From: Burkholderiales bacterium PBB6
GTDB lineage: Bacteria > Pseudomonadota > Gammaproteobacteria > Burkholderiales > Burkholderiaceae_C
NCBI GenBank assembly: GCA_002255925.1
Contig: NKIH01000005.1
Coordinates: forward strand, 186,001-250,000
Length of the DNA: 64,000 nt
Reading direction: 5' to 3'
Positions 33,889 to 52,741 of this stretch are shown here, piece by piece. Every line of letters begins with the position of its first letter. Position 1 is the stretch's first letter. Position numbers and translations under genes: made by a program. Under the pieces are notes generated by a model that was not told the DNA's origin, ran no database searches, and worked only from the letters and a program-made list of their open reading frames with translations.

Positions 33889-34146
33889 TCAGAAGCGGCG
33901 GGGAGCCGGACCGGCCGGACCGCGACGCTCGATGTGACGGAAGGTGATGCGACCCTTCGTCAGATCGTAGGGCGACAGCTCCAGCGACACCGCATCACCC
34001 GCGAGGATGCGGATGTGGTGCTTCTTCATCTTGCCCGACGTGTAGGCGACGAGCTGGTGACCGTTTTCCAGCGTGACGCGGAAACGCGAGTCAGGCAGGA
34101 CTTCGTCGACCTTGCCGTTCATTTCAATCAGTTCTTCCTTGGCCAT
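33889..34146 (-). CDS. infA: Translation initiation factor IF-1
   Basis: The 85-residue OB-fold protein starts [51 protein letters not shown] and has the IF-1 core [18 protein letters not shown]. It is longer than the 72-residue E. coli form, with a basic [12 protein letters not shown] tail typical of the extra betaproteobacterial copy. The standard copy usually sits in the ribosomal-protein operon near rpsM. This one is next to selD and faces away from it. Confidence 0.95.
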
Positions 34147-35648: not shown

Positions 35649-37202
35649 TCAGGCAGCGTCGCCAAGCTCTGCTGCAATGTCGAGCAGTTGCTCCGGCGTC
35701 GGCTTGTCCCACTGATCGCCCAGCGTGCCTTGGGCGTAGTAGCGCACCATCTCCTGCATCACGATCGGGTGCGTCCAGCCACTGGTCTGCAAGCGCTTGC
35801 GGATCGACGGGTGCATCTGGCGTGCCTCCATGTCGAGCAGCAGGTCGTCACTGAGGGCCTGCTGCACCTCGGGCGAGAGGCGGTGGATGTCGGCCACCAC
35901 CTGGTCACGCCTGCGGCGAATCCACTCCTCGGCCCAGCGGGTCTGCCGCCGGCTCTGGATTTCGCGGCTTTCCGGGCTGCGCGGGTCGGCCTTGGCTTCG
36001 CGCTCGGCCACGCGGGCATTGGCGCGCTCGAGCTCACCGGGCATCAGGCTGCGCAGGTAGCGGTACGGATCACGCAGCGGGGCAGGGAAGGCGGATGCCG
36101 CGCGGGTTGCCAGCAGCTGCAGGCCGGACTTCAGGGCGTCCACACCAAACTCCGCCTGCAACTCCTCGGCCTTGTCGGCGTCGATACCCAGGCGCTGCGC
36201 CTCGACCACCTGGCTGAGATCAACCGCCTCGGGGGCTTGGGCCAGAGCCAGCGACGACTGCTTCTTCGGGCGGATGAGGAACTGGATTTCCGCGATGAAG
36301 CGGCCTTCCTTGTGCTCGACCAGCTCGATGTCCAGGTCGGTAATGGCACTGACCTCGGCGATGGCCGGCTTCAGCGTGTCGCGCTTGAAGATGCGGTACT
36401 CCAGCTTGGCGGTGCGCTCGGTTTCCGGCTGACCGCTCAGCACCGGGCGCCACCAGCGCCAATGCTGCCGCGCCGTGCGGCCAACGTCCTTGTAGCGGGT
36501 ACAGATTTCGTAGAGGGCGATGCCGGCGTGCGAACGCAACTGGCTGATCACCTCCAGCTTCAGGCGCGCGAACACCGTGGGCTCAAGCAGCTCCTGCTTC
36601 AAATTCACGGCGTACGACCACTCGACCCAGACTTGCCCGCGCTCCTTGGTGAGCTTCGCATGGGCCAGCAGGCCGGACACGTTCCAGGCCGCACCTTCAC
36701 CGGTGGTGGGCGATTGCCACTCCACCGTGGTGGAAACCATGGCGCGCAGGTGCTTCTTGATCAGGGCATGGTCGTTGGAGTCGAAGTCGACCCCGCGCAC
36801 GACACGCTCCAGCGGGGCACGGAACACCTCGCGCTCAAGCCCTTGCTCCTGCGCCTCGTAGAGCAGCACGTTGTAGCTCTTGCGCCCGAGCGAGGTGATG
36901 CGGGCCGATTTCGGCACGATCGCCAGCGTGTTCACCGGCTTGCGCAGAGGCTGGGAGACTTCGAGCGGCTCAGCCCAGGAAGAAGGCGCCGCTTGAGGTG
37001 CAAGTGGTGTTGCACGTGGGCGAGTCACTCTCTTGGCGCGCTTGACAGGCACCGGGGCGGCCTCAACAGGGCCCTCAGGTGCATCGACAAGATCACTTGA
37101 GAGCTCAAGTGCAGCGGAATCGGCAGTTTCAGGGCGCAGGTCGGCCCTCAAGTCGATTTCAGCGGCATGAAAGGGCGAGGGCAGGGTGGGGCGACGAGCC
37201 AT
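35649..37202 (-). CDS. Plasmid-type replication initiator (Rep_3 superfamily)
   Basis: The 517-residue protein starts MARRPTLPSPFHAAEIDLRA. It has an Ala/Pro-rich N-terminus with a basic VPVKRAKRVTRPRATP patch. The paired winged-helix initiator region follows (VPKSARITSLGRKSYNVLLYEAQEQG; VEWSYAVNLKQELLEPTVFARLKLEVISQLRSHAGIALYEICTRYKDVGRT; RIFKRDTLKPAIAEVSAITDLDIELVEHKEGRFIAEIQFLI), and then a long charged C-terminal extension. Initiators of this type melt an iteron origin and load the helicase. The iteron field lies directly upstream, and parAB follow divergently. It is longer than small-plasmid Rep proteins (about 300 residues), as in chromid initiators. Confidence 0.88.
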   Translation of the reverse strand: MARRPTLPSPFHAAEIDLRADLRPETADSAALELSSDLVDAPEGPVEAAPVPVKRAKRVTRPRATPLAPQAAPSSWAEPLEVSQPLRKPVNTLAIVPKSARITSLGRKSYNVLLYEAQEQGLEREVFRAPLERVVRGVDFDSNDHALIKKHLRAMVSTTVEWQSPTTGEGAAWNVSGLLAHAKLTKERGQVWVEWSYAVNLKQELLEPTVFARLKLEVISQLRSHAGIALYEICTRYKDVGRTARQHWRWWRPVLSGQPETERTAKLEYRIFKRDTLKPAIAEVSAITDLDIELVEHKEGRFIAEIQFLIRPKKQSSLALAQAPEAVDLSQVVEAQRLGIDADKAEELQAEFGVDALKSGLQLLATRAASAFPAPLRDPYRYLRSLMPGELERANARVAEREAKADPRSPESREIQSRRQTRWAEEWIRRRRDQVVADIHRLSPEVQQALSDDLLLDMEARQMHPSIRKRLQTSGWTHPIVMQEMVRYYAQGTLGDQWDKPTPEQLLDIAAELGDAA

Positions 37203-37281
37203 GGGCGGATCGTACCTGATGCGTGAGGAGCGCATTCACATGACGAATACGGGGGTGTAGCCCGTGAAAGGGAACAGTGAT

Positions 37282-37862
37282 TCAGGTGAGTCGGCCGATG
37301 AATCACGCATTGCCCGCAAATTCGTCAAGCGAGGGCATTGTGTCAAGGCCGGCGCGAGGATTCCTGAAAACTCTCACTTGAGCAGCCTGCGGGGAGGCCA
37401 AGGGGCTGTCGCTTGGGGCCAACGGGGTGATGGCCACTCGCCCGAAAACTCTCACCTCAAGCCCTTCGAATGCCGGAAAGTGGTCGCAAGGCCTGGATCC
37501 CGAAAAGTCTCCAGGTTGTTGCATTGAAGTCCGCAGCCCTCAACTTTGAGTCGCCGGAAGTTTCCTGAAAAGTCTCACATGAACACCTGCAGGGCCGCTG
37601 GGAGTTCAAGAAGACACTGAATTGCTCAGAACAACGCCAACACGACAGCGGGTCGCGTCGGGCTTTGTGAGGGGCAGGCAAAGCGCCCCCGAAAATCCTC
37701 ACCTGAGCGTGCCCACAATCAACGGATCAGGCACCGAGGCGCGATTCGGCCATGGCCCCGTATCCCTGCACCCTCGTTCCTGTAAAAGCTCCGCGGCATC
37801 CCGCCAATCTGCATCGAACATCCTGAAAAGCCGCCAAGCCGTCCTGTATCCACTCACCTGGA
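37282..37862 (+). repeat. Iteron field of the secondary replicon origin
   Basis: Eight related units share the pattern CCTGAAAACTCTCACCTGAG: 37363-37383, 37441-37461, 37499-37518, 37564-37584, 37688-37708, 37779-37792, 37822-37840 and 37843-37862. The first five are well conserved. The last three are degenerate. An inverted half-unit, TCAGGTGAG (37282-37290), lies nearest the rep start, as expected for a rep autoregulation site. No tidy DnaA box was found. This is the probable origin of the replicon. Confidence 0.8.
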
Positions 37863-38051: not shown

Positions 38052-38066
38052 GTTGAACGGTTCAAC
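38052..38066. promoter_or_regulatory. parS-like site 1 (GTTGAACGGTTCAAC)
   Basis: This near-perfect palindrome (7-bp arms around a central G) lies 38 bp upstream of the parA start. It is the first of five copies within 4.7 kb. Its place in the par promoter region fits partition-site and autorepression roles. Confidence 0.7.
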
Positions 38067-38104
38067 GTCAAGTTGGCGTTGACTGCCGAACCAGGAGATT
38101 CACG

Positions 38105-39382
38105 TTGGACAGACTATCCGTCAAAGCGCCCAAATCCATATCGCTCGCAGACATTGCTGAGCAAGCGGAACGGGCTGTGGCCATGATGGGCCAGATTCGC
38201 GCCGCCATGTTGGCGCCCACCGCACGCAAAGTACCGCCGCTTTTCAACCTCAGCCAGCTCGCTGCGCTGTGCGGCATTGAAAAGGGCTCTCTCAGCCATC
38301 GTCTTGGCAAAGGGGATTTGCCTGTTGGACGACTCAACGAGGCGGGAAGCCGCCGCGAGTTCAACCTGGAAGAAGCGCGAATCTGGATCCGTGAATACCG
38401 CAAGGAATACCTGCGGCCAGCGGGCGCCGAAGCGGTCACGATCAGCATTGGCAACTTCAAGGGTGGCGTCAGCAAAACCACGACGGCTGTGACGCTGGCG
38501 CAAGGCCTGTCTTTGCTGGGGCACCGCGTGCTGGTCATCGACACTGACCCGCAGGGTTCCCTCACTACCTTATTCGGCATCTTGCCGGACACGGAGGTCG
38601 ATGAAGAGGACACCATCTTGCCGCTGGCGATGGGCACCGAGACGTCGATCCGTTATGCGATTCGACCGTCGTACTGGAACGGCATTGACCTGGTTGCGGC
38701 TGCGCCTGTGCTGTTCGGCGCAGAGTTCGCCTTGCCCGCCCGCCAAACTCAGGAGCCGGGCTTCGAGTTCTGGCGTGTGCTGGATCTGGGCATCGACGAC
38801 GTGCGCGATGAGTACGACGTGATCGTGATCGATACACCGCCGGCCTTGTCGTACACGACCATCAATGCCTTCATGGCGTCGAACGGCATCATCATGCCGC
38901 TGCCGCCCAATGCGCTCGACTTTGCGTCGGCGTCGCAGTTCTGGAGTTTGTTCTCCGACCTGACCGCCGAGCTGCTGACCAAGCGCGGCTTGACCAAGGA
39001 CTTCGACTTCATCCATGTGCTGCTGGCTCGGGTGGACAGCACCGATGCCGCCAGCAACATCGTGCGCCAGTGGATTGGCCAGACCTACGCCGAGAAGGTC
39101 TTGCCGGTTGAAATTCCGAAGACAGCAGTGACGGGTGTCACGGCTGCCGAATTCGGCACCGTGTACGACGTCGCTCGCTACGACGGCTCTGCCCGTACGT
39201 TCAAGCGCGCCCGCGATGCCTACGACTCTTTCGTCGGGCACATTGAGGGTTCGATCCGTGCGGTCTGGTCGAAACAAGTGGACGCCCTGGCGGCGTCGCG
39301 GGCGCCGGTGTTGAACGGTTCAACGCCGGCGGGGGAGGGCGCCCAAGGCGGCGCAAATCCGAGGACGGGAGCTAAGCGATGA
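38105..39382 (+). CDS. parA: ParA-family partition ATPase (type Ia, with N-terminal HTH)
   Basis: The 425-residue protein starts at TTG (38105) after the ribosome site CAGGAGA. An N-terminal winged-helix region (about 45-100: FNLSQLAALCGIEKGSLSHRLGKGDLP) precedes the ATPase domain with the deviant Walker A KGGVSKTTT (119-127), IDTDPQGSLT and VIDTPPALSYT. This is the architecture of P1-type ParA, which also binds the par promoter. Near the C-terminus the parS motif encodes L403-NGST. It overlaps parB by 4 bp (ATGA). It most likely moves ParB-bound DNA during replicon segregation. Confidence 0.93.
   Translation: MDRLSVKAPKSISLADIAEQAERAVAMMGQIRAAMLAPTARKVPPLFNLSQLAALCGIEKGSLSHRLGKGDLPVGRLNEAGSRREFNLEEARIWIREYRKEYLRPAGAEAVTISIGNFKGGVSKTTTAVTLAQGLSLLGHRVLVIDTDPQGSLTTLFGILPDTEVDEEDTILPLAMGTETSIRYAIRPSYWNGIDLVAAAPVLFGAEFALPARQTQEPGFEFWRVLDLGIDDVRDEYDVIVIDTPPALSYTTINAFMASNGIIMPLPPNALDFASASQFWSLFSDLTAELLTKRGLTKDFDFIHVLLARVDSTDAASNIVRQWIGQTYAEKVLPVEIPKTAVTGVTAAEFGTVYDVARYDGSARTFKRARDAYDSFVGHIEGSIRAVWSKQVDALAASRAPVLNGSTPAGEGAQGGANPRTGAKR
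39310..39324. promoter_or_regulatory. parS-like site 2, inside parA
   Basis: GTTGAACGGTTCAAC within the parA 3' end, read in frame as (V)LNGST. A 27-bp block starting at 39308 is identical to the block at 39748 in parB, which suggests copying of a small cassette. Confidence 0.7.
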
Positions 39383-40419
39383 GCAAAAAGTTGGCTGCCA
39401 AGGCCGGGTTGATCATGGGCCTGCCTTTGCCGGTGGCGGGTGCAACGCCTGCGCCTGCTGTTCGCCCCGATGTAGACGCAAACGCGGGTCGGCCGAAAAC
39501 CGCGCCGGGTTCGATGCTGCAGTTCATGTCGAGCCAATCCGCCGCCATCAAGGAGGCGGATGACCTTCGTGAGCGCCTCAAGGATTTCGACGGTGCGGCG
39601 CCCGTGCGCCTGCTTGATCCGAAGCTGATCCGTCCTTCGCGGTGGGCCAACCGCCACGAAGACTCGTTCAGCAGCCCGGAGTTTGATGAGCTGAAGAACG
39701 AGATCGACAGCGCCGGCGGCAACGTGCAACCGATCCGGGTTCGGCCTGTGTTGAACGGTTCAACGCCGGCGGGGCAGGGCGGGGCGATGTACGAGGTGGT
39801 GTTCGGCCACCGCCGGCACCGCGCGTGTCTGGACCTCGGCATTGAGGTGCGCACGCTGATCGAAGATGCCTCTGACCAGGAGCTGTTCGAGGCGATGGAG
39901 CGCGAGAACCGCGGCCGCAAGAACCTGAGTGCCTGGGAACAGGGCTGCATGTACCGCAAGGCGTTGGACGAGGGCCTGTACCCCTCGCTGCGCAAGCTGG
40001 CTGAGGGCGTCAAGGTGGACGTTTCTCTGGTGTCCAAGAGCGTGGCGCTGGCCCGTCTTCCTGACGCGGTGGTGGCGGCTTTCCCTTCGCCGCTGGACAT
40101 CCAGTTCCGCTGGGCGCAGCCGCTGGGTGAGGCCTTGCAGAAGGATCCGGACGGCACGTTGAGCCGGGCTCGAGGCCTGAAGGATCAAGCCGCGGTGATG
40201 TCCGCAGCGCAAGTGTTCGAGGCCTTGGTCAACCCGAAACAGTCGGCGTTGAACGGTTCAACGTCACGGGTGACGACGTTGGGGAAGAGTGCCAAGAAGG
40301 GCGCCACCGTGACGGCAGATGCCAAGGGCGGTGTGCAGATCAAATTCGCGCCGGGCGTGGTTCTAGAAGCTCGCCGGCAAGACTTGATCAAGCTCATCGA
40401 GGGCTTCCTCGCGCTCTGA
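39379..40419 (+). CDS. parB: ParB-family partition protein
   Basis: The 346-residue protein has a variable N-terminus, the ParB core (LIRPSRWANRHEDSFSSPEFDELKNEIDSAGGNVQPIRVRP, then YEVVFGHRRHRACLDLG and the phosphoryl-transfer motif region MERENRGRKNLSAWEQGCMYRKAL), and a helix-turn-helix (YPSLRKLAEGVKVDVSLVSKSVALARLPDAVVAAF) and dimer end. Between IRVRP and YEVVFGHRR an extra loop VLNGSTPAGQGGAM is encoded by parS-like site 3, and site 4 encodes LNGST at 291-295. ParB normally binds parS, here probably the GTTGAACGGTTCAAC motif that its own gene carries. Confidence 0.93.
   Translation: MSKKLAAKAGLIMGLPLPVAGATPAPAVRPDVDANAGRPKTAPGSMLQFMSSQSAAIKEADDLRERLKDFDGAAPVRLLDPKLIRPSRWANRHEDSFSSPEFDELKNEIDSAGGNVQPIRVRPVLNGSTPAGQGGAMYEVVFGHRRHRACLDLGIEVRTLIEDASDQELFEAMERENRGRKNLSAWEQGCMYRKALDEGLYPSLRKLAEGVKVDVSLVSKSVALARLPDAVVAAFPSPLDIQFRWAQPLGEALQKDPDGTLSRARGLKDQAAVMSAAQVFEALVNPKQSALNGSTSRVTTLGKSAKKGATVTADAKGGVQIKFAPGVVLEARRQDLIKLIEGFLAL
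39750..39764. promoter_or_regulatory. parS-like site 3, inside parB
   Basis: GTTGAACGGTTCAAC read in frame as LNGST (residues 125-129) in a loop between two conserved ParB motifs. The flanking 27-bp block is shared with site 2. Confidence 0.7.
40248..40262. promoter_or_regulatory. parS-like site 4, inside parB
   Basis: GTTGAACGGTTCAAC in frame as LNGST (residues 291-295) near the ParB C-terminal linker. Flanks differ from sites 2 and 3, so only the 15-mer is shared. Confidence 0.7.
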
Positions 40420-40446
40420 GCTGACGACAGCGAGTTCAAAAAAACG

Positions 40447-40480
40447 AAGGGGGAGGGCGCTGAGCCTTCCCCCTTTTTTT
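40447..40480 (+). terminator. Rho-independent terminator after parB
   Basis: AAGGGGGAGGGC...GCCTTCCCCCTT form a 12-bp stem with one G-T pair and a 5-nt loop, followed by seven to eight T. A run of A on the other side lets it also act for the convergent recombinase gene. It is the strongest terminator in the window. Confidence 0.9.
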
Positions 40481-40539
40481 CGTTCTGAAGGCTGTCACTG
40501 CGCGATTGGCGCATCGCGCTGCAGCCCAAAACTGCCGAG

Positions 40540-42606
40540 TCAATCGCCCTGGCCCCGCCCCGTTGGAGGGCTTTCGAGGCTCGGATCGACCACGCCAAAC
40601 ACCTGATCCATCTCGGCCTGCAGACGTTCCAATTGCGCCTTCGCGTAGCGCATGGTGGTGCGTGGGTCGGCATGGCCGAGCTGACGCTGAACGACTTCGA
40701 GCGGGGCTTTCCGCTCCAGTGCACGGGTGCCAAACGTGTGCCGCAACCAGTGCGGCGAGGCACGCAGGGCATCCTCCAGATCGGCCTTGTCGAGGGCGCT
40801 GGCCAGCAAGGCTTGCCGCATCCAGCGCTTCATCGTCTGGTACAGCGCCTGGTAGCCGATGGACTCGGTTGGCTCCTGGGTGCTGGCCAGCAAGGGCAGG
40901 GCGGTGTCGGCTTGCCCGAGTGCCGGCAGGCCGCGTGCCTGCAGGTAGGTGGCCAAGGCTTGCTCGGCCTGGCCGGGCACCGCGATGACGCGGTTGCGTG
41001 AGCCCTTGCCCTGAACCTGCAGCGCCAGCCGACCCTTGTGGCGGCGGAAATGCCCGAGTCGTGCGTTCAGCAACTCGGCCGCACGCAGGCCGGTGGCTTC
41101 CACGAAGGTGAGCAGAAAGCGGATGCGGGCCAGCGATGCGGTGTTCGGCTGGCGCGCCAGAAAGTCGTGAATGGCGCTCCACACTTCCGGCGTGAAAGCG
41201 CGTGAGTCGAGCTCATTGCGCGTTGCATCGTCGCCGGTCCGGCGGTTCACCAGCATCCACGGATTGCGCAGCGACAGCCAGCCCACGTCCACCATCCACG
41301 CGAAAAAGCTGCCCAGCACCACCACGGCCTGCCGACGGCTGGCCAGGCTCAGAGGCCCGCGAAAGGGCGCCCAGCCCTGCGCGAGCACATGCGCACGTTG
41401 GCGCGAGGACCACGTCGGCGGCACATGTTCAAGGAAGGCCATGTAGGCCAGGCAGTCCTCCACCTGCGTATCGCGAAAGCCTTTGCCGCGCTCCTGGTTC
41501 AGCCAGATGAGCATGCGGCGGGCCTCGCGGCGGTAGCTCGTGGCGGTGGGCAGTGCGCCGGCGCGGGCCGCAACCCACGCCTCGATGATTTCGACATCGT
41601 CGCGCGCGCTGGTCATCAGCGGTTGGCTGATGGCCGAGTTTTGGTCTGTGGCGGTGCTGTTGGCCAGTGCTGAAAAATGAGGCAAAACCTCAAAATCGCC
41701 GGAAAGGGCCTTCAAAGGCCCGTCAGGCGATTTTTCGACCTCACCTTGCCAACCCCCTTGGCTAGCGCCTGATCGGCCGTCTGGCGCGGTTCTGGCGCCT
41801 CTGTTTTCAGGGGGCTGCGGGGCCGGAAAGTGGCCTTGCGGACGCGCAAGCGCTGGCGCCGGAGGGTAGGGCAGGGGTGAGCTGCCCTGCCCGCCTGGCA
41901 GGGCAGGGTGGCCGTCTGCGATTGACGCGCTCGGCAACAAAAAGCGTGCGGCCGCGGCCGGGGCTTGCGCGGGCAGCAGCGTGTGGAGGTAGCTGCAGAT
42001 CCGCTGGGCCTTGGTCTGGCCGATGGCTGGCAAGCCGCGCCACCAGTGGCCACCGGCGGCGATGCGATCCAGCAAATCACTCAGCAGCAGCAGGCCGGCG
42101 TCTTGAAGCCGTTGGGCCGTGACGGGGTCGAACCATCCGTTGATCGGGTCGGTGGGCTGCGGTGTTTCCGCGGCGGCTTGCTCCAGTGCCTTGAGCAGCG
42201 CGAGCTGGCGTTCGCGCAGGCGCTGCCGGCGCTCGGCGCGGCGGTCGGCCGGATAGGCCTCTGCGTACATCTCCTGGACTTCGGCTTCGCCCCAGTCGTC
42301 CAGATCGCGCTCAGCGATGAAGTCGTCCAGGGATGGGCGTGGCCCGGTGCTGGTCAGGCGGATGTTCAGGCCAACGAGACGCCAGGCGCGGTCGCCTCGT
42401 CGGCGAGCCAGGTTGCGCAGCTCATCGACCACCGCGCGGTGTGCGGTGATGGCCTGGTGGCCGTGGTCGATGCCGAGATAACGCTCAGCAGACTCCAGCA
42501 ACGGCAAGCCTTCGGCCACGGCACGGAGGTGCGCGAAGTGGTGAACGCCGATCCGGCGCGCGCCGGCCATGCGGTAAGTGCTTGATTTTGCTGTGATCAG
42601 CGGCAT
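40540..42606 (-). CDS. Large tyrosine recombinase with N-terminal HhH-type domain
   Basis: The 688-residue protein starts MPLITAKSSTYRMAGARRIGVHHFAHLRAV. An N-terminal region (about 1-300, DUF3701-like) includes a helix-hairpin-helix stretch RGLPAIGQTKAQRICSYL. A low-complexity linker follows, then the core-binding and catalytic domains. The active-site residues are present: Arg in ATGLRAAELLNAR, His and Arg in SPHWLRHTFGTRAL, His in QLGHADPRTTMRYAK and the Tyr therein. It is convergent with parB across a shared terminator. Roles could be dimer resolution of the replicon or integration. The 28-bp dyad at 42644-42671 upstream is a candidate target or operator. Confidence 0.88.
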   Translation of the reverse strand: MPLITAKSSTYRMAGARRIGVHHFAHLRAVAEGLPLLESAERYLGIDHGHQAITAHRAVVDELRNLARRRGDRAWRLVGLNIRLTSTGPRPSLDDFIAERDLDDWGEAEVQEMYAEAYPADRRAERRQRLRERQLALLKALEQAAAETPQPTDPINGWFDPVTAQRLQDAGLLLLSDLLDRIAAGGHWWRGLPAIGQTKAQRICSYLHTLLPAQAPAAAARFLLPSASIADGHPALPGGQGSSPLPYPPAPALARPQGHFPAPQPPENRGARTAPDGRSGASQGGWQGEVEKSPDGPLKALSGDFEVLPHFSALANSTATDQNSAISQPLMTSARDDVEIIEAWVAARAGALPTATSYRREARRMLIWLNQERGKGFRDTQVEDCLAYMAFLEHVPPTWSSRQRAHVLAQGWAPFRGPLSLASRRQAVVVLGSFFAWMVDVGWLSLRNPWMLVNRRTGDDATRNELDSRAFTPEVWSAIHDFLARQPNTASLARIRFLLTFVEATGLRAAELLNARLGHFRRHKGRLALQVQGKGSRNRVIAVPGQAEQALATYLQARGLPALGQADTALPLLASTQEPTESIGYQALYQTMKRWMRQALLASALDKADLEDALRASPHWLRHTFGTRALERKAPLEVVQRQLGHADPRTTMRYAKAQLERLQAEMDQVFGVVDPSLESPPTGRGQGD

Positions 42607-42643
42607 GTCGAACTTCAGTCTGTGTTTTGACGCGCAAATTTGA

Positions 42644-42671
42644 TTATTAGATTATTACACTTATCTAATAA
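42644..42671. repeat. 28-bp AT-rich dyad (possible recombination or operator site)
   Basis: TTATTAGAT (42644-42652) and ATCTAATAA (42663-42671) are perfect 9-bp arms around a 10-bp AT-rich spacer, 38 bp upstream of the recombinase start. Total length 28 bp equals that of dif sites, though no sequence similarity to known dif is claimed. Confidence 0.55.
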
Positions 42672-42766
42672 ATAAAGCAGACCGGGCAGGGCAGTGGGGT
42701 CAGTTTTGGGCGCGGCGCCACCGGTGGTGGCCGCCAAAGTGCCGAGTTCAAGCCCGGCTGGCGGGC

Positions 42767-42781
42767 ATTGAACGGTTCAAC
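42767..42781. promoter_or_regulatory. parS-like site 5 (ATTGAACGGTTCAAC)
   Basis: Identical to the other four sites except for the first base (A for G). It lies between the large recombinase and the AraC-type regulator, 4.7 kb from site 1, just after the AraC-type stop codon region on the other strand. Confidence 0.65.
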
Positions 42782-45256: not shown

Positions 45257-46237
45257 TCAGACCGGCACCGGGCCGTTGCCGCTGTCGAGCTGCCGCTTGA
45301 TGGCATCGATCGAGAACGCAGTGCGCAGACCCAGCCACTTCATCAAGGTTGCATTGTCGATGCCTTGATCGATCTGGCGCACCGCATAGGTATTTCGCAG
45401 GGTCTGCGGGCCGAGCTGGTCTTGCGCCATGCCCGCCGCTTCCATCGCCGGGCGGATGATTTCGTACAACTCGGACGTGCTGATGGCATGGGGCATGGGC
45501 TCGCCGCCATCCACCTCCACGGTTGGTGATCGCTTGCGTGCGACAAACAAGACATTCCCGCCAACGTGCAGCTGGGCGCGTGTCTGTGACCAGGCTTCCA
45601 GAATGGGCTGACTCCAGCCTGGCAGCGGCAGTTGTCGGCTGGTCACCGGTGAAGGTGTGCGGATGTGCAGCATCGGATGCTTGCCGCTTGTCACCAGGTC
45701 GTTGGTGGTCAGTCGCAATGACTCTTCCACCGTGATGCCGCAGGCCAGATAGATACAGCGCAAAGCTGCGTCGCGTTGGTCACACCAGCCCGGGCGCGGC
45801 TGTTGATTGACCCACTGGATGTAGCTTTGCGATTGCTCGACGCTCAGGAACCGCGGCGCATTTCGCACCGTGCCGCCCTGCTTCAAGCGTTGTTGAACGG
45901 CTTCGATGGGTGACGCGGCCATCAGCCCGGCTTGGGCCAGATGGTTGAACAGCATGGTGAGCGTGCCGATGTAGCGTCGCACCGTGCCGGCGGATGCCGG
46001 CTGACCACCCCGGCCGCGGAGACTTTTCAGGAAAGCTTCGACGTCAGCCGGACGGGCATCAACCAGATGTCGCTCTCTTTCCTCGTAAAGCCAATCTGCG
46101 GCGGTGCCGATCATCGCGCTGTATTGGGCGACGGAATGCGGGGCGTAACTGACCTGGCTGTCGGTGGTCAGCCACCTGCGAGCGGCTTCGCGAGGGTCGA
46201 GGGACCACAGCAGTTGTGGCGTGGAATCTTGAGACAT
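45257..46237 (-). CDS. Tyrosine-recombinase-fold protein, probably catalytically inactive
   Basis: The 326-residue protein (start MSQDSTPQLLWSLDPREAARRWL) has a SAM-like N-terminal domain and a C-terminal catalytic-fold domain, but the usual residues are altered. The Arg of the first box is replaced (LACGITVEESLRL, where others have GLRxxEL). HxLR has become QTLRNTYAV. LGH is LGLRTAFS. No Tyr follows at the usual place before the end. If right, it binds DNA without cutting it. Four GGCGTATATCC-like motifs lie in its promoter. Frame extension upstream to 46327 is read from these repeats and is not used. Confidence 0.78.
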   Translation of the reverse strand: MSQDSTPQLLWSLDPREAARRWLTTDSQVSYAPHSVAQYSAMIGTAADWLYEERERHLVDARPADVEAFLKSLRGRGGQPASAGTVRRYIGTLTMLFNHLAQAGLMAASPIEAVQQRLKQGGTVRNAPRFLSVEQSQSYIQWVNQQPRPGWCDQRDAALRCIYLACGITVEESLRLTTNDLVTSGKHPMLHIRTPSPVTSRQLPLPGWSQPILEAWSQTRAQLHVGGNVLFVARKRSPTVEVDGGEPMPHAISTSELYEIIRPAMEAAGMAQDQLGPQTLRNTYAVRQIDQGIDNATLMKWLGLRTAFSIDAIKRQLDSGNGPVPV

Positions 46238-46370
46238 ACGCCAATATACCGGATATACGCCGTTCCGCTTTTTTTCAAGAAGAACGTTGTGCCAGACGCC
46301 ATAGAACAATATGGCGTATATCCACACAAATTAGTACTATCCATACCAGGCAACTCCTTGGCGTATATCC
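46233..46370. repeat. Four GGCGTATATCC motifs at the inactive-recombinase promoter
   Basis: On the minus strand, GGCGTATATCC (46251-46261) and GGCGTATGTC (46233-46242) are direct repeats 19 bp apart. On the plus strand, GGCGTATATCC occurs at 46313-46323 and 46360-46370. The first pair overlaps the start codon of the recombinase-fold gene. The minus-strand and plus-strand copies are inverted with respect to each other, so they could be operators or arm-type binding sites. Confidence 0.75.
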
Positions 46371-50220: not shown

Positions 50221-50329
50221 GGCAGCAGGTCCTGATTGGGGCAAACAACCGGTCAGTGTAGCCGCCGTGCCGTGAAAGAATATGAGCCAACCTCCCCAAC
50301 GCCCGCAGACCGCCGTACGAAACGCCACC

Positions 50330-52741
50330 ATGAAAAGAGCCGTGAAGATCGTCCTGGGCCTGCTGGCCGTCACCCTGACTGCGGCCGTCGCCGGCGGTGC
50401 CTGGTGGGTGCACAGCAAAGCGCCGGTGCGCGAAGGCCACTTGCAGCTGCAAGGTCTGTCAGCGGCCGTCGACGTGCGCTGGGACGAGCGTGGCGTGCCG
50501 CACCTGAAGGCCGCCAACGACGATGACCTGTACCGTGCGCTCGGCTACCTGCATGCGCAGGACCGTCTGTTCCAGATGGAGATGCTGCGCAGGCTGTCGC
50601 GCGGCGAACTGGCGGAGGTGCTCGGCCCCAAGTTGCTGCCCACCGACCGCCTGTTCCGCACCCTGGGCATTCGCCAACGTGCTGATGCCGTGGCCGCTGG
50701 CATGGACGTGAATTCACCCAGCGCCAAGGCGCTGCTGGCCTACCTGGACGGCGTGAACCAGTATCAAGACACCCGCCCCGCGCCGATGGAGTTCCAGATC
50801 CTGGGCATCCAGAAGCGCCCGTTCAAACCGGAAGACACCCTGAGTGTGGCCGGCTACCTGGCCTATTCCTTCGCCGTGGCCTTCCGCACCGAGCCAGTGC
50901 TGACGCGCGTGCGCGACGACCTCGGCGCGCCTTACCTCGACGTCTTCGACCTCGACTATCACCCCGACGGCGTGCTGGGCAGCCCCTCGGCCACCCAAGC
51001 GCTGAACGACGCCACCCACACCATGCTGGCCCAGTTGGCGCAAGTCAGCGCCGAGGCCTTGCCCTTGGCCGGGCTGCCGCAGTTCGAAGGCAGCAATGCC
51101 TGGGCGGTGTCGGGCCGCTTGACTGAAAGTGGCAAGCCGCTGCTGGCCGGTGACCCGCACATCAGCTTCGCCACGCCGGCGGTCTGGTGGGAAGCCCACC
51201 TGCAATCGCCGGGCTTCGAGCTGTATGGTCACTTCCAGGCCTTGAACCCCAGTGCCTTGCTCGGCCACAACCAGCAATTCGCCTGGAGCCTGACGATGTT
51301 CCAGAACGACGACGTCGACCTGATCGCCGAGAAGACCGATGCCGGCCACCCTGACCAGGTGCTGATCAAGGGCACCTGGCACCGCATGGCGACGCGCGAA
51401 GAGGTGATCCAGGTGAAAGGCGCCGAGCCTGTGCGCCTGACCCTGCGCAGCACACCCCACGGCCCCATCATCAATGAAGCATTGGGCACTGCGGCTGGTC
51501 AGACGCCCATCGCCCTCTGGTGGGCCTTCCTCGAAACGCCCAACCCGGTGTTGCAGGCCTTTCATGAGCTCAACCGCGCCGACACGCTGGAGAAGGCCCG
51601 CACGGCCTCGAGCCACATTCACGCACCCGGCTTGAACATCGTCTGGGCGAATGCCAAGGGCGACATCGGCTGGTGGGCCGCTGCCCTGATTCCTGAACGA
51701 CCGGCCGGCGTGAACCCCGCCTTCATCCTTGATGGCAGCACCGCGCAAGCCGACAAGCTGGGCTTCCGCCCATTCGCCGACAACCCGCAGGAAGAAAACC
51801 CGCAGCGCGGCTACATCATCTCGGCCAACCACCAGCCCGCCACCGGCCAGCCCGTGGCCGGCTACTACAACCTGCCCGACCGGGCCCGCCGCCTGAACCA
51901 GCAACTCGCCGACAGCAACCGGCGCTGGAACACCACCAACAGCCGCGCACTGCAGCTCGATGACGGCACGGCGTATCACAGCCGCGTGCTGGCCAGCGTG
52001 GTGCCGGTGCTGAAACCGCAACTTGCGGCATCGCCCGAAGAATCCGCATTGCTCGACAAGCTGGCCGCCTGGGACGGCCGCTACGGCGTGAGCGCCACCG
52101 AGCCCGCGCTCTTCGCACAGTTGCTGTACGAGATCACCAAGGAAGCCATGGCCGACGAGCTGGGCACCGACAACTTCGCGCTGCTGCTGCGCACCCGCTC
52201 GCTGGACGACGCACTGCCGCGGCTGGTCAGCGACGCTGCCTCGCCGTGGTGGGACAAGCGCGGCACGCCCGCCAAGGAAGACCGCGCCGCCGGCCTGCTG
52301 GCGGCATGGAAGGCCACCCTCGCCCACCTGCGCACGCTGTATGGCCAAGACCCGGCCCAATGGACCTGGGGCCAGACCCACCAGGTCACCCACGCGCACC
52401 CACTGGGCCAGCAGAAGCCGCTCGACCGCATCTTCAACGTCGGCCCGTTCCCGGCACCGGGTGGCCGCGAAACGCCGAACAACTACAGCTACACGACCGG
52501 CCCGGCGCCGTGGTCCACCGTGTATGGCCCGTCCACCCGTCGCCTGATCGACCTGGCCGCTCCGGGCCAGAGCGTGGGCATCAACCCGGTCGGACAGAGC
52601 GGGGTGTGGGGCGACAAGCACTATGCCGATCAAGCGCCGCTGCACATGCGGGGCGACTACCAGCGCCAGTACCTCGATGAGGCCGATGTGGCGACCGCGA
52701 CGCAATCCACCCTGGTGTTCCAGCCGGCAGCGGCGCGCTGA
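50330..52741 (+). CDS. Penicillin acylase family hydrolase
   Basis: The 803-residue protein starts MKRAVKIVLGLLAVTLTAAVAGGAWWV, a membrane anchor or signal, then DVRWDERGVPHLKAANDDDLYRALGYLHAQDRLFQMEMLRRLSRGELAEVLG of the alpha subunit. The autoprocessing nucleophile is Ser255 in FEGSNAWAVSG. The usual family motifs LLGHNQQFAWSLTMFQNDDVDL and YHSRVLASVV follow. These Ntn-hydrolases cleave amides such as penicillins, N-acyl-homoserine lactones or acyl-amino acids in the periplasm. An ATG at 50282 gives 16 extra residues. Confidence 0.93.
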   Translation: MKRAVKIVLGLLAVTLTAAVAGGAWWVHSKAPVREGHLQLQGLSAAVDVRWDERGVPHLKAANDDDLYRALGYLHAQDRLFQMEMLRRLSRGELAEVLGPKLLPTDRLFRTLGIRQRADAVAAGMDVNSPSAKALLAYLDGVNQYQDTRPAPMEFQILGIQKRPFKPEDTLSVAGYLAYSFAVAFRTEPVLTRVRDDLGAPYLDVFDLDYHPDGVLGSPSATQALNDATHTMLAQLAQVSAEALPLAGLPQFEGSNAWAVSGRLTESGKPLLAGDPHISFATPAVWWEAHLQSPGFELYGHFQALNPSALLGHNQQFAWSLTMFQNDDVDLIAEKTDAGHPDQVLIKGTWHRMATREEVIQVKGAEPVRLTLRSTPHGPIINEALGTAAGQTPIALWWAFLETPNPVLQAFHELNRADTLEKARTASSHIHAPGLNIVWANAKGDIGWWAAALIPERPAGVNPAFILDGSTAQADKLGFRPFADNPQEENPQRGYIISANHQPATGQPVAGYYNLPDRARRLNQQLADSNRRWNTTNSRALQLDDGTAYHSRVLASVVPVLKPQLAASPEESALLDKLAAWDGRYGVSATEPALFAQLLYEITKEAMADELGTDNFALLLRTRSLDDALPRLVSDAASPWWDKRGTPAKEDRAAGLLAAWKATLAHLRTLYGQDPAQWTWGQTHQVTHAHPLGQQKPLDRIFNVGPFPAPGGRETPNNYSYTTGPAPWSTVYGPSTRRLIDLAAPGQSVGINPVGQSGVWGDKHYADQAPLHMRGDYQRQYLDEADVATATQSTLVFQPAAAR

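What the first reader, a model, noticed from the sequence alone, without database searches (positions are those of the whole stretch)
38052..42781. Five identical parS-like sites, three of them in frame inside parA and parB
GTTGAACGGTTCAAC occurs at 38052, 39310, 39750, 40248 and (with one base changed) 42767. In parA and parB the site is translated in the same frame as LNGST, and a 27-bp block around sites 2 and 3 is identical. In ParB one copy encodes an apparent extra loop between two conserved core motifs. So the segregation genes seem to carry their own centromere sites as coding insertions, spread as small cassettes. The 15-mer differs from the canonical chromosomal parS (TGTTTCACGTGAAACA).
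Basis: partly seen in the sequence, partly recalled or inferred. Interest (0 to 1): 0.8.

Follow-up and report, generated by a model that had tools for sequence, protein, structure and literature searches.

The report
Centromere sites hidden inside partition genes
On what is probably a secondary replicon of an Ideonella-type bacterium, copies of the short DNA signal that the DNA-sorting protein most probably grips lie inside the protein-coding parts of the sorting genes themselves; related replicons keep them in the same floppy protein segments even when the signal's sequence has changed together with the protein.

Summary
GTTGAACGGTTCAAC occurs exactly four times in the 4.41-Mb genome, all at this parAB locus, plus a single-mismatch copy at 42767; three copies are in frame in parA and parB. 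It is very probably the parS of this ParB. Nine relatives' genomes hold the site only at their par locus. ParB's recognition helix is the stretch of either protein that best tracks site sequence; residue 217 matches base 5 of the half-site (Asn-T 9/9, Asp-G 5/5, others-A 31/32; in later loci Asn-T 10/10, others-A 1/3). Coding location is a family trait: 39 of 58 aligned loci carry at least one coding site, in the ParA tail or in ParB's N-terminus, a hairpin loop, the HTH-to-C-terminal linker or the C-end, in all three frames and with different site sequences. In seven relatives every site found is coding. The 'insertion cassettes' are only partly borne out: loops and tails are longer with a site, but some siteless relatives keep long loops, and flanks are not copied within genomes (sites 2 and 3 here may be an exception). 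A new variant of ParABS: single intragenic parS sites were known. ParB binding is untested.

The parts
35649..37235 (-). Rep_3-family replication initiator, divergent from parAB
   Evidence: Pfam Rep3_N/Rep3_C above cut-off; a replication initiation protein lies beside parAB on the Ideonella dechloratans 709-kb replicon
37362..37834 (.). six 14-nt direct repeats (iteron-like), putative origin region
   Evidence: repeat search; function inferred
38052..38066 (.). parS-like site 1, upstream of parA (non-coding)
   Evidence: six relatives have a site 127-139 bp upstream of parA
38105..39382 (+). parA (TTG start): Walker-type ATPase, helical N-terminal region, low-confidence C-terminal tail
39310..39324 (.). 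parS-like site 2, in frame in the ParA C-terminal tail (VLNGST, residues 402-407)
   Evidence: residues 398-425 have pLDDT below 50 in a model of low overall confidence
39379..40419 (+). parB (overlaps parA by 4 nt): ParB_N plus SopB-type HTH
39750..39764 (.). parS-like site 3, in frame in ParB hairpin loop 1 (VLNGST, residues 124-129)
   Evidence: between strands 119-123 and 138-142
40027..40029 (+). codon of ParB residue 217 (Leu), third residue of the recognition helix, co-varying with base 5 of the half-site
40248..40262 (.). parS-like site 4, in frame in the ParB linker between HTH and C-terminal domain (ALNGST, residues 290-295)
   Evidence: between helix 286-289 and strand 297-301, pLDDT about 60
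40446..40476 (+). terminator-like hairpin after parB
   Evidence: 9 such hairpins in the region, 5.5 expected in shuffles
40540..42606 (-). tyrosine recombinase with DUF3701
   Evidence: Pfam; integrases lie near parB on several relatives' plasmids
42767..42781 (.). one-mismatch parS-like site 5, between the recombinase and an AraC-like gene (named by eye, no family search)
   Evidence: downstream sites are common in relatives (63 of 157 called sites)

Best explanation
This is a type I ParABS partition module of a probable secondary replicon whose centromere is a 15-bp odd palindrome (GTTGAACSGTTCAAC, about 21 bp with flanks) repeated at the par locus. ParB is inferred to bind each site through its HTH recognition helix, load there (as a CTP-dependent clamp, inferred from conserved motifs) and build the partition complex that ParA moves. 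Because parA and parB overlap and leave no gap, copies are kept inside the genes where the protein tolerates many peptides: the ParA tail, and in ParB the N-terminus, a hairpin loop and the linker before the C-terminal domain. Where ParB has another specificity, the sites inside its own gene differ to match. Shown by sequence: restriction to the locus, DNA-level constraint, recurrent positions in three frames, co-variation with the recognition helix. Inferred: ParB binding, clamp loading, partition, any feedback on par transcription.
For: Whole genomes: of 22 genomes that I chose (17 with a ParB relative, 5 without one), 10 (own included) have GTTGAACSGTTCAAC, every match at the par locus, and 12 have none; of these 12, 7 have ParB relatives of other site classes and 5 have no relative; the reversed control is 0 in all. 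GTTGGACNGTCCAAC is found only in the 2 of 10 genomes with that ParB class, again only at par. DNA-level constraint: 39 of 40 LN[GR]ST peptides in these ParA/ParB use the codons TTG AAC GGT/CGT TCA (about 0.0018 expected each from codon use); 53 coding sites are in frames 2 (46) and 0 (7); frame 1 occurs in other classes. Position: 24 of 24 ParA sites lie in the tail and 38 of 39 mapped ParB sites in four segments (the exception, L021, is an unrelated GC-rich palindrome); two more called ParB sites, in L034 and L096, were not mapped. 39 of 58 aligned loci (window and L073 included) have at least one coding site, with at least 8 (loop 1) and 9 (linker 2) gains/losses on the tree. Reader: ParB 213-224 is the best co-varying window of both proteins (partial rho 0.44; 0 of 1000 permutations; best ParA window 0.29); residue 217 versus base 5 in 46 thinned loci: N-T 9/9, D-G 5/5, other-A 31/32, at least 10 and 11 changes on the tree; later loci: N-T 10/10, six of them one genus. 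Fold: Noc, KorB, Spo0J, SopB.
Against: No binding, loading or stability experiment. 19 of 58 loci have no called coding site (some of these have asymmetric ones that the caller misses), and 63 of 157 called sites lie downstream of parB, so a coding position is common, not required. In the later set the 'other residue-A' part held in only 1 of 3 called loci, one Asn217 locus (L098) gave no site call, and no Asp217 locus was sampled. L073 (Met217) has C at base 5; its half-site was assigned by hand. L094 carries the GTTGAAC site with a different helix. Independent pairs on supported branches are few (4), so relatedness is not fully excluded. The site caller also calls something in 41 of 1220 shuffles.
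Confidence: 0.86

Rival explanations
1. The palindrome is mainly a transcriptional operator (ParA or ParB autoregulation) and the intragenic copies act as roadblocks or decoys rather than as the centromere.
For: Site 1 is 53 bp upstream of parA; 7 of the 24 GTTGAAC-class loci have an upstream site. A paper proposes that a parS within parA affects its expression in M. bovis BCG (PMC2346475, passages).
Against: 17 of the 24 GTTGAAC-class loci have no upstream site called within 400-600 bp (some loci are cut near parA); arrays of up to eight sites lie downstream of parB (L039); ParA windows co-vary with the site less than the ParB helix.
Confidence: 0.1
2. LNGST is a conserved peptide with a protein function and the DNA identity is a by-product.
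For: The same pentapeptide recurs in ParA and ParB.
Against: Codons fixed against codon use; the same site is read VEPFN/VERFN in the ParA tail, and other site classes give VGQSN and other peptides at the same positions; identical sites occur in non-coding DNA; the central base varies, changing G to R or S.
Confidence: 0.02
3. Small mobile cassettes carrying the site inserted repeatedly into the genes.
For: 27-bp identity of sites 2 and 3; longer loops and tails in site bearers.
Against: No shared flanks beyond an extended palindromic consensus; within-genome similarity about equals between-genome; 8 of 40 siteless ParBs keep loops of 13-17 aa.
Confidence: 0.06

Closest known systems
RepABC replicons of Alphaproteobacteria (RepA/RepB and parS)
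   Same: ParA's and ParB's best NCBIfam hits are RepA and RepB; GTT...AAC palindromes; sites at the 5' end of repB and within other ORFs are reported (PMC9040568, sections 7 and 8 and passages)
   Different: Sub-threshold scores; the initiator is Rep_3 and divergent; site is 15 bp and odd, not 16-bp GTTNNCNGCNGNNAAC; sites recur in linkers of ParA and ParB
Bsr partition systems of Burkholderiales secondary replicons (PMC5450999: abstract, part 1 of 5 of the text and passages)
   Same: Type I Par on secondary replicons of Burkholderiales, replicon-specific palindromic parS
   Different: Bsr parS are 16-bp palindromes with a central CG; here 15-bp with one unpaired central base; intragenic sites were not in what I saw
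Polaromonas plasmid Par modules (PMC6015842, passages)
   Same: Plasmids pE3SP1, pE10SP1 and pE5SP1 named there carry relatives of this ParB (one search lists the strains; pE5SP1 is L110)
   Different: Their putative parS sites are listed in a supplementary table that I could not read, so sites of some relatives may already be in print; no statement on intragenic sites in the passages seen
Chromosomal ParABS with intragenic parS (M. bovis BCG parA, PMC2346475 passages; B. subtilis spo0J, recalled)
   Same: A parS inside a par gene
   Different: Single sites of the 16-bp chromosomal sequence; no recurrent linker positions or site switching in what I saw
ParB/Noc specificity switching (PMC7383237, passages)
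   Same: A few HTH-region residues set site specificity
   Different: There an engineered ParB-to-Noc change; here natural co-variation of one recognition-helix residue with one base across a plasmid ParB family

Membership tests
Type I ParABS (HTH-bearing ParA class) | ParA with deviant Walker A motif and an N-terminal extension | tested here: met
   KGGVSKTTT motif; AAA_31; RepA/SopA-like hits along the length, below their cut-offs; helices in the N-terminal region
Type I ParABS (HTH-bearing ParA class) | ParB with ParB_N and HTH centromere-binding domain | tested here: met
   Pfam ParB_N and SoPB_HTH above cut-off; TIGR00180 above cut-off; fold matches to Noc, KorB, Spo0J, SopB
Type I ParABS (HTH-bearing ParA class) | Repeated cis sites confined to the replicon's par region | tested here: met
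Type I ParABS (HTH-bearing ParA class) | ParB binds the sites and they give partition | not testable with these tools
   co-variation only
RepABC | RepA/RepB equivalog scores | tested here: not met
   227 versus 348 and 96 versus 201 bits
RepABC | repC in the same operon | tested here: not met
   the initiator is Rep_3 and divergent; the gene after parB is a recombinase on the other strand
Bsr | 16-bp parS with central CG | tested here: not met
   15-bp odd palindrome
Bsr | ParB phylogeny within Bsr | not tested
   Bsr reference ParBs were not aligned
Chromosomal ParABS | TGTTTCACGTGAAACA parS, Spo0J-type ParB | tested here: not met
   different site; a separate gene with a much stronger ParB_N match lies on C24

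The most novel reading that the evidence does not exclude
A centromere embedded in the genes of its own readers: in this ParABS family the disordered segments of ParA and ParB are used as storage for parS, in some replicons for every copy found, so that a change of ParB specificity needs, and shows, matching changes in sites within the same reading frame; a single recognition-helix residue (217) largely sets base 5 of the site.
Probability: 0.7. Interest if true: 0.72.

Novelty: new variant of a known kind. Interest (0 to 1): 0.62.

Why it matters
It offers a natural series of centromere-reader pairs with readable specificity (residue 217 and base 5), which makes the question of how centromere and binding protein change together directly testable. 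It shows protein linkers under DNA-level selection, which affects how length differences in ParA/ParB are read. It also means that parS searches limited to intergenic DNA would miss every site found in seven of the loci examined here.

Tried and rejected
Cassette spread: flank comparison gave no general signal. Loop length as insertion: significant without tree control, borderline in the close clade, too few independent pairs. The first motif search (GTT...AAC only) left many relatives without a site; a de novo palindrome search called one in 56 of 61 loci (shuffled control 41 of 1220), so earlier loop 1 and linker 2 counts, which missed other classes, were redone. (gap and overlap counts) still uses GTT...AAC classes only. 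L021's call is a spurious GC-rich palindrome and was dropped; seven loci with truncated or odd ParA were listed for exclusion; near-identical ParBs (85% or more) were thinned to 42 and 46 rows. Three loci (L034, L035, L096) were left out of the 61 to give 58 aligned. Viral contigs, metagenomes and the phage collection were not searched.

Paper searches (all ten used): the 15-mer is in none of the held papers. Precedents came; searches gave nothing more that I used, and one search gave the Polaromonas paper, whose parS table is in a supplement that I could not read. Passot 2012 is not held. That linker-embedded, reader-tracking parS is undescribed rests on these searches only.
Full report
What is there. 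The window is G000:C26:186001-250000 of a 4.41-Mb genome in 34 contigs. The 709-kb Ideonella dechloratans replicon carries rep, parA, parB and infA within about 13 kb, which suggests a secondary replicon here too (inference; the contig is 407 kb). The locus is: Rep_3 initiator (35649-37235, minus), iteron-like repeats, parA (38105-39382), parB (39379-40419, 4-nt overlap), a terminator-like hairpin (40446) and a tyrosine recombinase with DUF3701.

GTTGAACGGTTCAAC is at 38052, 39310, 39750 and 40248, with a one-mismatch copy at 42767; 0.04 matches were expected against 10 strand-wise matches at up to 2 mismatches. The exact site is nowhere else in the genome; with up to 2 mismatches two further places appear, on C24 and C4, while the reversed control finds 6.

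Relatives. ParB relatives were found in 77 of 200 genomes of the family at E 0.001 and 14 of 16 of the genus at E 1e-30, own genome included in both, in 15 named loci of genome contigs and in 1364 plasmid records, of which I fetched 12 for the first analysis and 8 later. After removing duplicates there were 61 loci, window included; 58 were aligned. The GTTGAAC site occurs in 24 of them. Of 22 chosen whole genomes, 10 (own included) have a match, all at the par locus; 12 have none, 7 with ParB relatives of other site classes and 5 with no relative.

DNA, not peptide. In the ParA tail the site is read LNGST/LNRST in 18 loci and VEPFN/VERFN in 4, i.e. in two frames. 39 of 40 LN[GR]ST peptides use TTG AAC GGT/CGT TCA; codon use predicts about 0.0018 per occurrence. 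The 40th (L043) is a one-base decayed site. Relatives with other sites carry them in the same places: GTTGGAC in loop 1 in frame 0 (L045, L046), GTTTGAC in loop 1 (L095, Cupriavidus), an asymmetric GTTGCAT/GTTGCAC site in loop 1 and linker 2 (L073), GTTGTAC in linker 2 in frames 2 and 0 (L047, L069, L067), and GTGGAAC in frame 1 in linker 2 and the N-terminus (L061, L065) or linker 2 alone (L024).

Where in the protein. In the AlphaFold model of ParB (mean pLDDT 82, 46 rows) site 3 encodes residues 124-129, between strands 119-123 and 138-142, and site 4 encodes 290-295, between helix 286-289 and strand 297-301, where confidence dips to about 60. The ParA tail 398-425 is below 50 in a model of low overall confidence (mean 63, 25 rows). 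Over all loci, 24 of 24 ParA sites are in the tail and 38 of 39 mapped ParB sites in four segments (N-terminus 5, loop 1 17, linker 2 15, C-end 1); the one outside is the spurious L021 call, and two called sites (L034, L096) were not mapped. Coding sites occur in 39 of 58 loci; minimum gains/losses are 4 (tail), 3 (N-terminus), 8 (loop 1) and 9 (linker 2). In seven GTTGAAC loci (L015, L040, L041, L075, L076, L080, L083) every site, even at 2 mismatches, is coding within the 3.5-19 kb examined; for three of them (G094, G195, G011) the whole genome holds no other exact site.

Which protein reads it. Among 12-residue windows of ParA and ParB in 42 thinned loci, ParB 213-224, the recognition helix, tracks site differences best after control for overall ParB distance (partial rho 0.44, 0 of 1000 permutations; best ParA window 0.29). 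Residue 217 matches base 5 of the half-site in 46 thinned loci: Asn-T 9/9, Asp-G 5/5, Leu/Gln/Ala/Met/Trp/Gly-A 31/32. Base 5 changes at least 11 times and the residue class at least 10 times on a tree built without the HTH; independent pairs on supported branches are only 4 and agree in nearly every pairing. In 18 further loci, 14 gave a site call: the 10 with Asn217 all have T at base 5 (six are one genus), of three with another residue only one has A, and one was not covered at residue 217; a further Asn217 locus gave no call. So the Asn-T rule held up on new data, the default-A rule did not outside the family, and Asp-G was not tested again.

Insertions and cassettes. Loop 1 is longer with a site (18 loci, mean 16.9) than without (40 loci, mean 10.9), yet 8 siteless ParBs have 13-17 residues, and in the 27 closest loci the difference is borderline (p=0.05, kinship not corrected). 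Site flanks share a consensus (T before the site in 73 of 86, A after it in 73 of 86, mostly GG and CC beyond), which explains much of the 27-bp identity; beyond it, sites within a genome are no more alike than between genomes, the window's sites 2 and 3 being the most alike pair.

Mechanism. ParB keeps the GHRRHR and ENRGRKNLS stretches where Spo0J/Noc-type ParBs have their CTP motifs (sequence, alignments; CTP role from established knowledge) and folds like Noc, KorB, Spo0J and SopB. I infer clamp loading at each site and partition by ParA. Overlap of parA and parB leaves no gap: 27 of 29 loci with GTT...AAC sites and abutting genes have a coding site, while the three with gaps over 60 bp all have sites in the gap, two of them also in parB.

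Known background. repABC parS sites occur at the 5' end of repB and in other ORFs (PMC9040568), a parS lies in M. bovis BCG parA (PMC2346475), Bsr parS are 16 bp (PMC5450999), and few HTH-region residues set ParB/Noc specificity (PMC7383237); I read the passages and sections named. Putative parS sites of Polaromonas plasmids, three of which carry relatives of this ParB, are tabulated in a supplement of PMC6015842 that I could not read.

Noticed in passing
33889-34146 (-): An infA-like (IF-1) gene, named by eye, sits near the rep/par module; the Ideonella dechloratans 709-kb replicon has an annotated infA about 8 kb from parB.
   Followed up: partly
40540-42606 and 45257-46327 (-): Two tyrosine recombinases close to parB; integrases lie near parB on several relatives' plasmids, perhaps resolving replicon dimers.
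   Followed up: no
L063, L062, L021, L094, L025 (ParB linker 2): Five relatives have asymmetric linker sites whose halves differ only at base 3 (for example GTGGAAC with GTTCTAC), suggesting that base 3 is loose in this subclade; the site caller misses these.
   Followed up: partly
L027, L031, L032, L034, L068, L107: Relatives with a different palindrome, GGAAACC or GGCAACC, lying mostly between parA and parB and in some in the ParB N-terminus; those aligned have Trp at residue 217.
   Followed up: no
50282-52741 (+): Penicillin-amidase-family acylase in the same window.
   Followed up: no
G052 and G168: Single genomes with ten and nine ParB-like matches of this family, which would need sites that do not cross-react; a natural test of mutual compatibility.
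   Followed up: no
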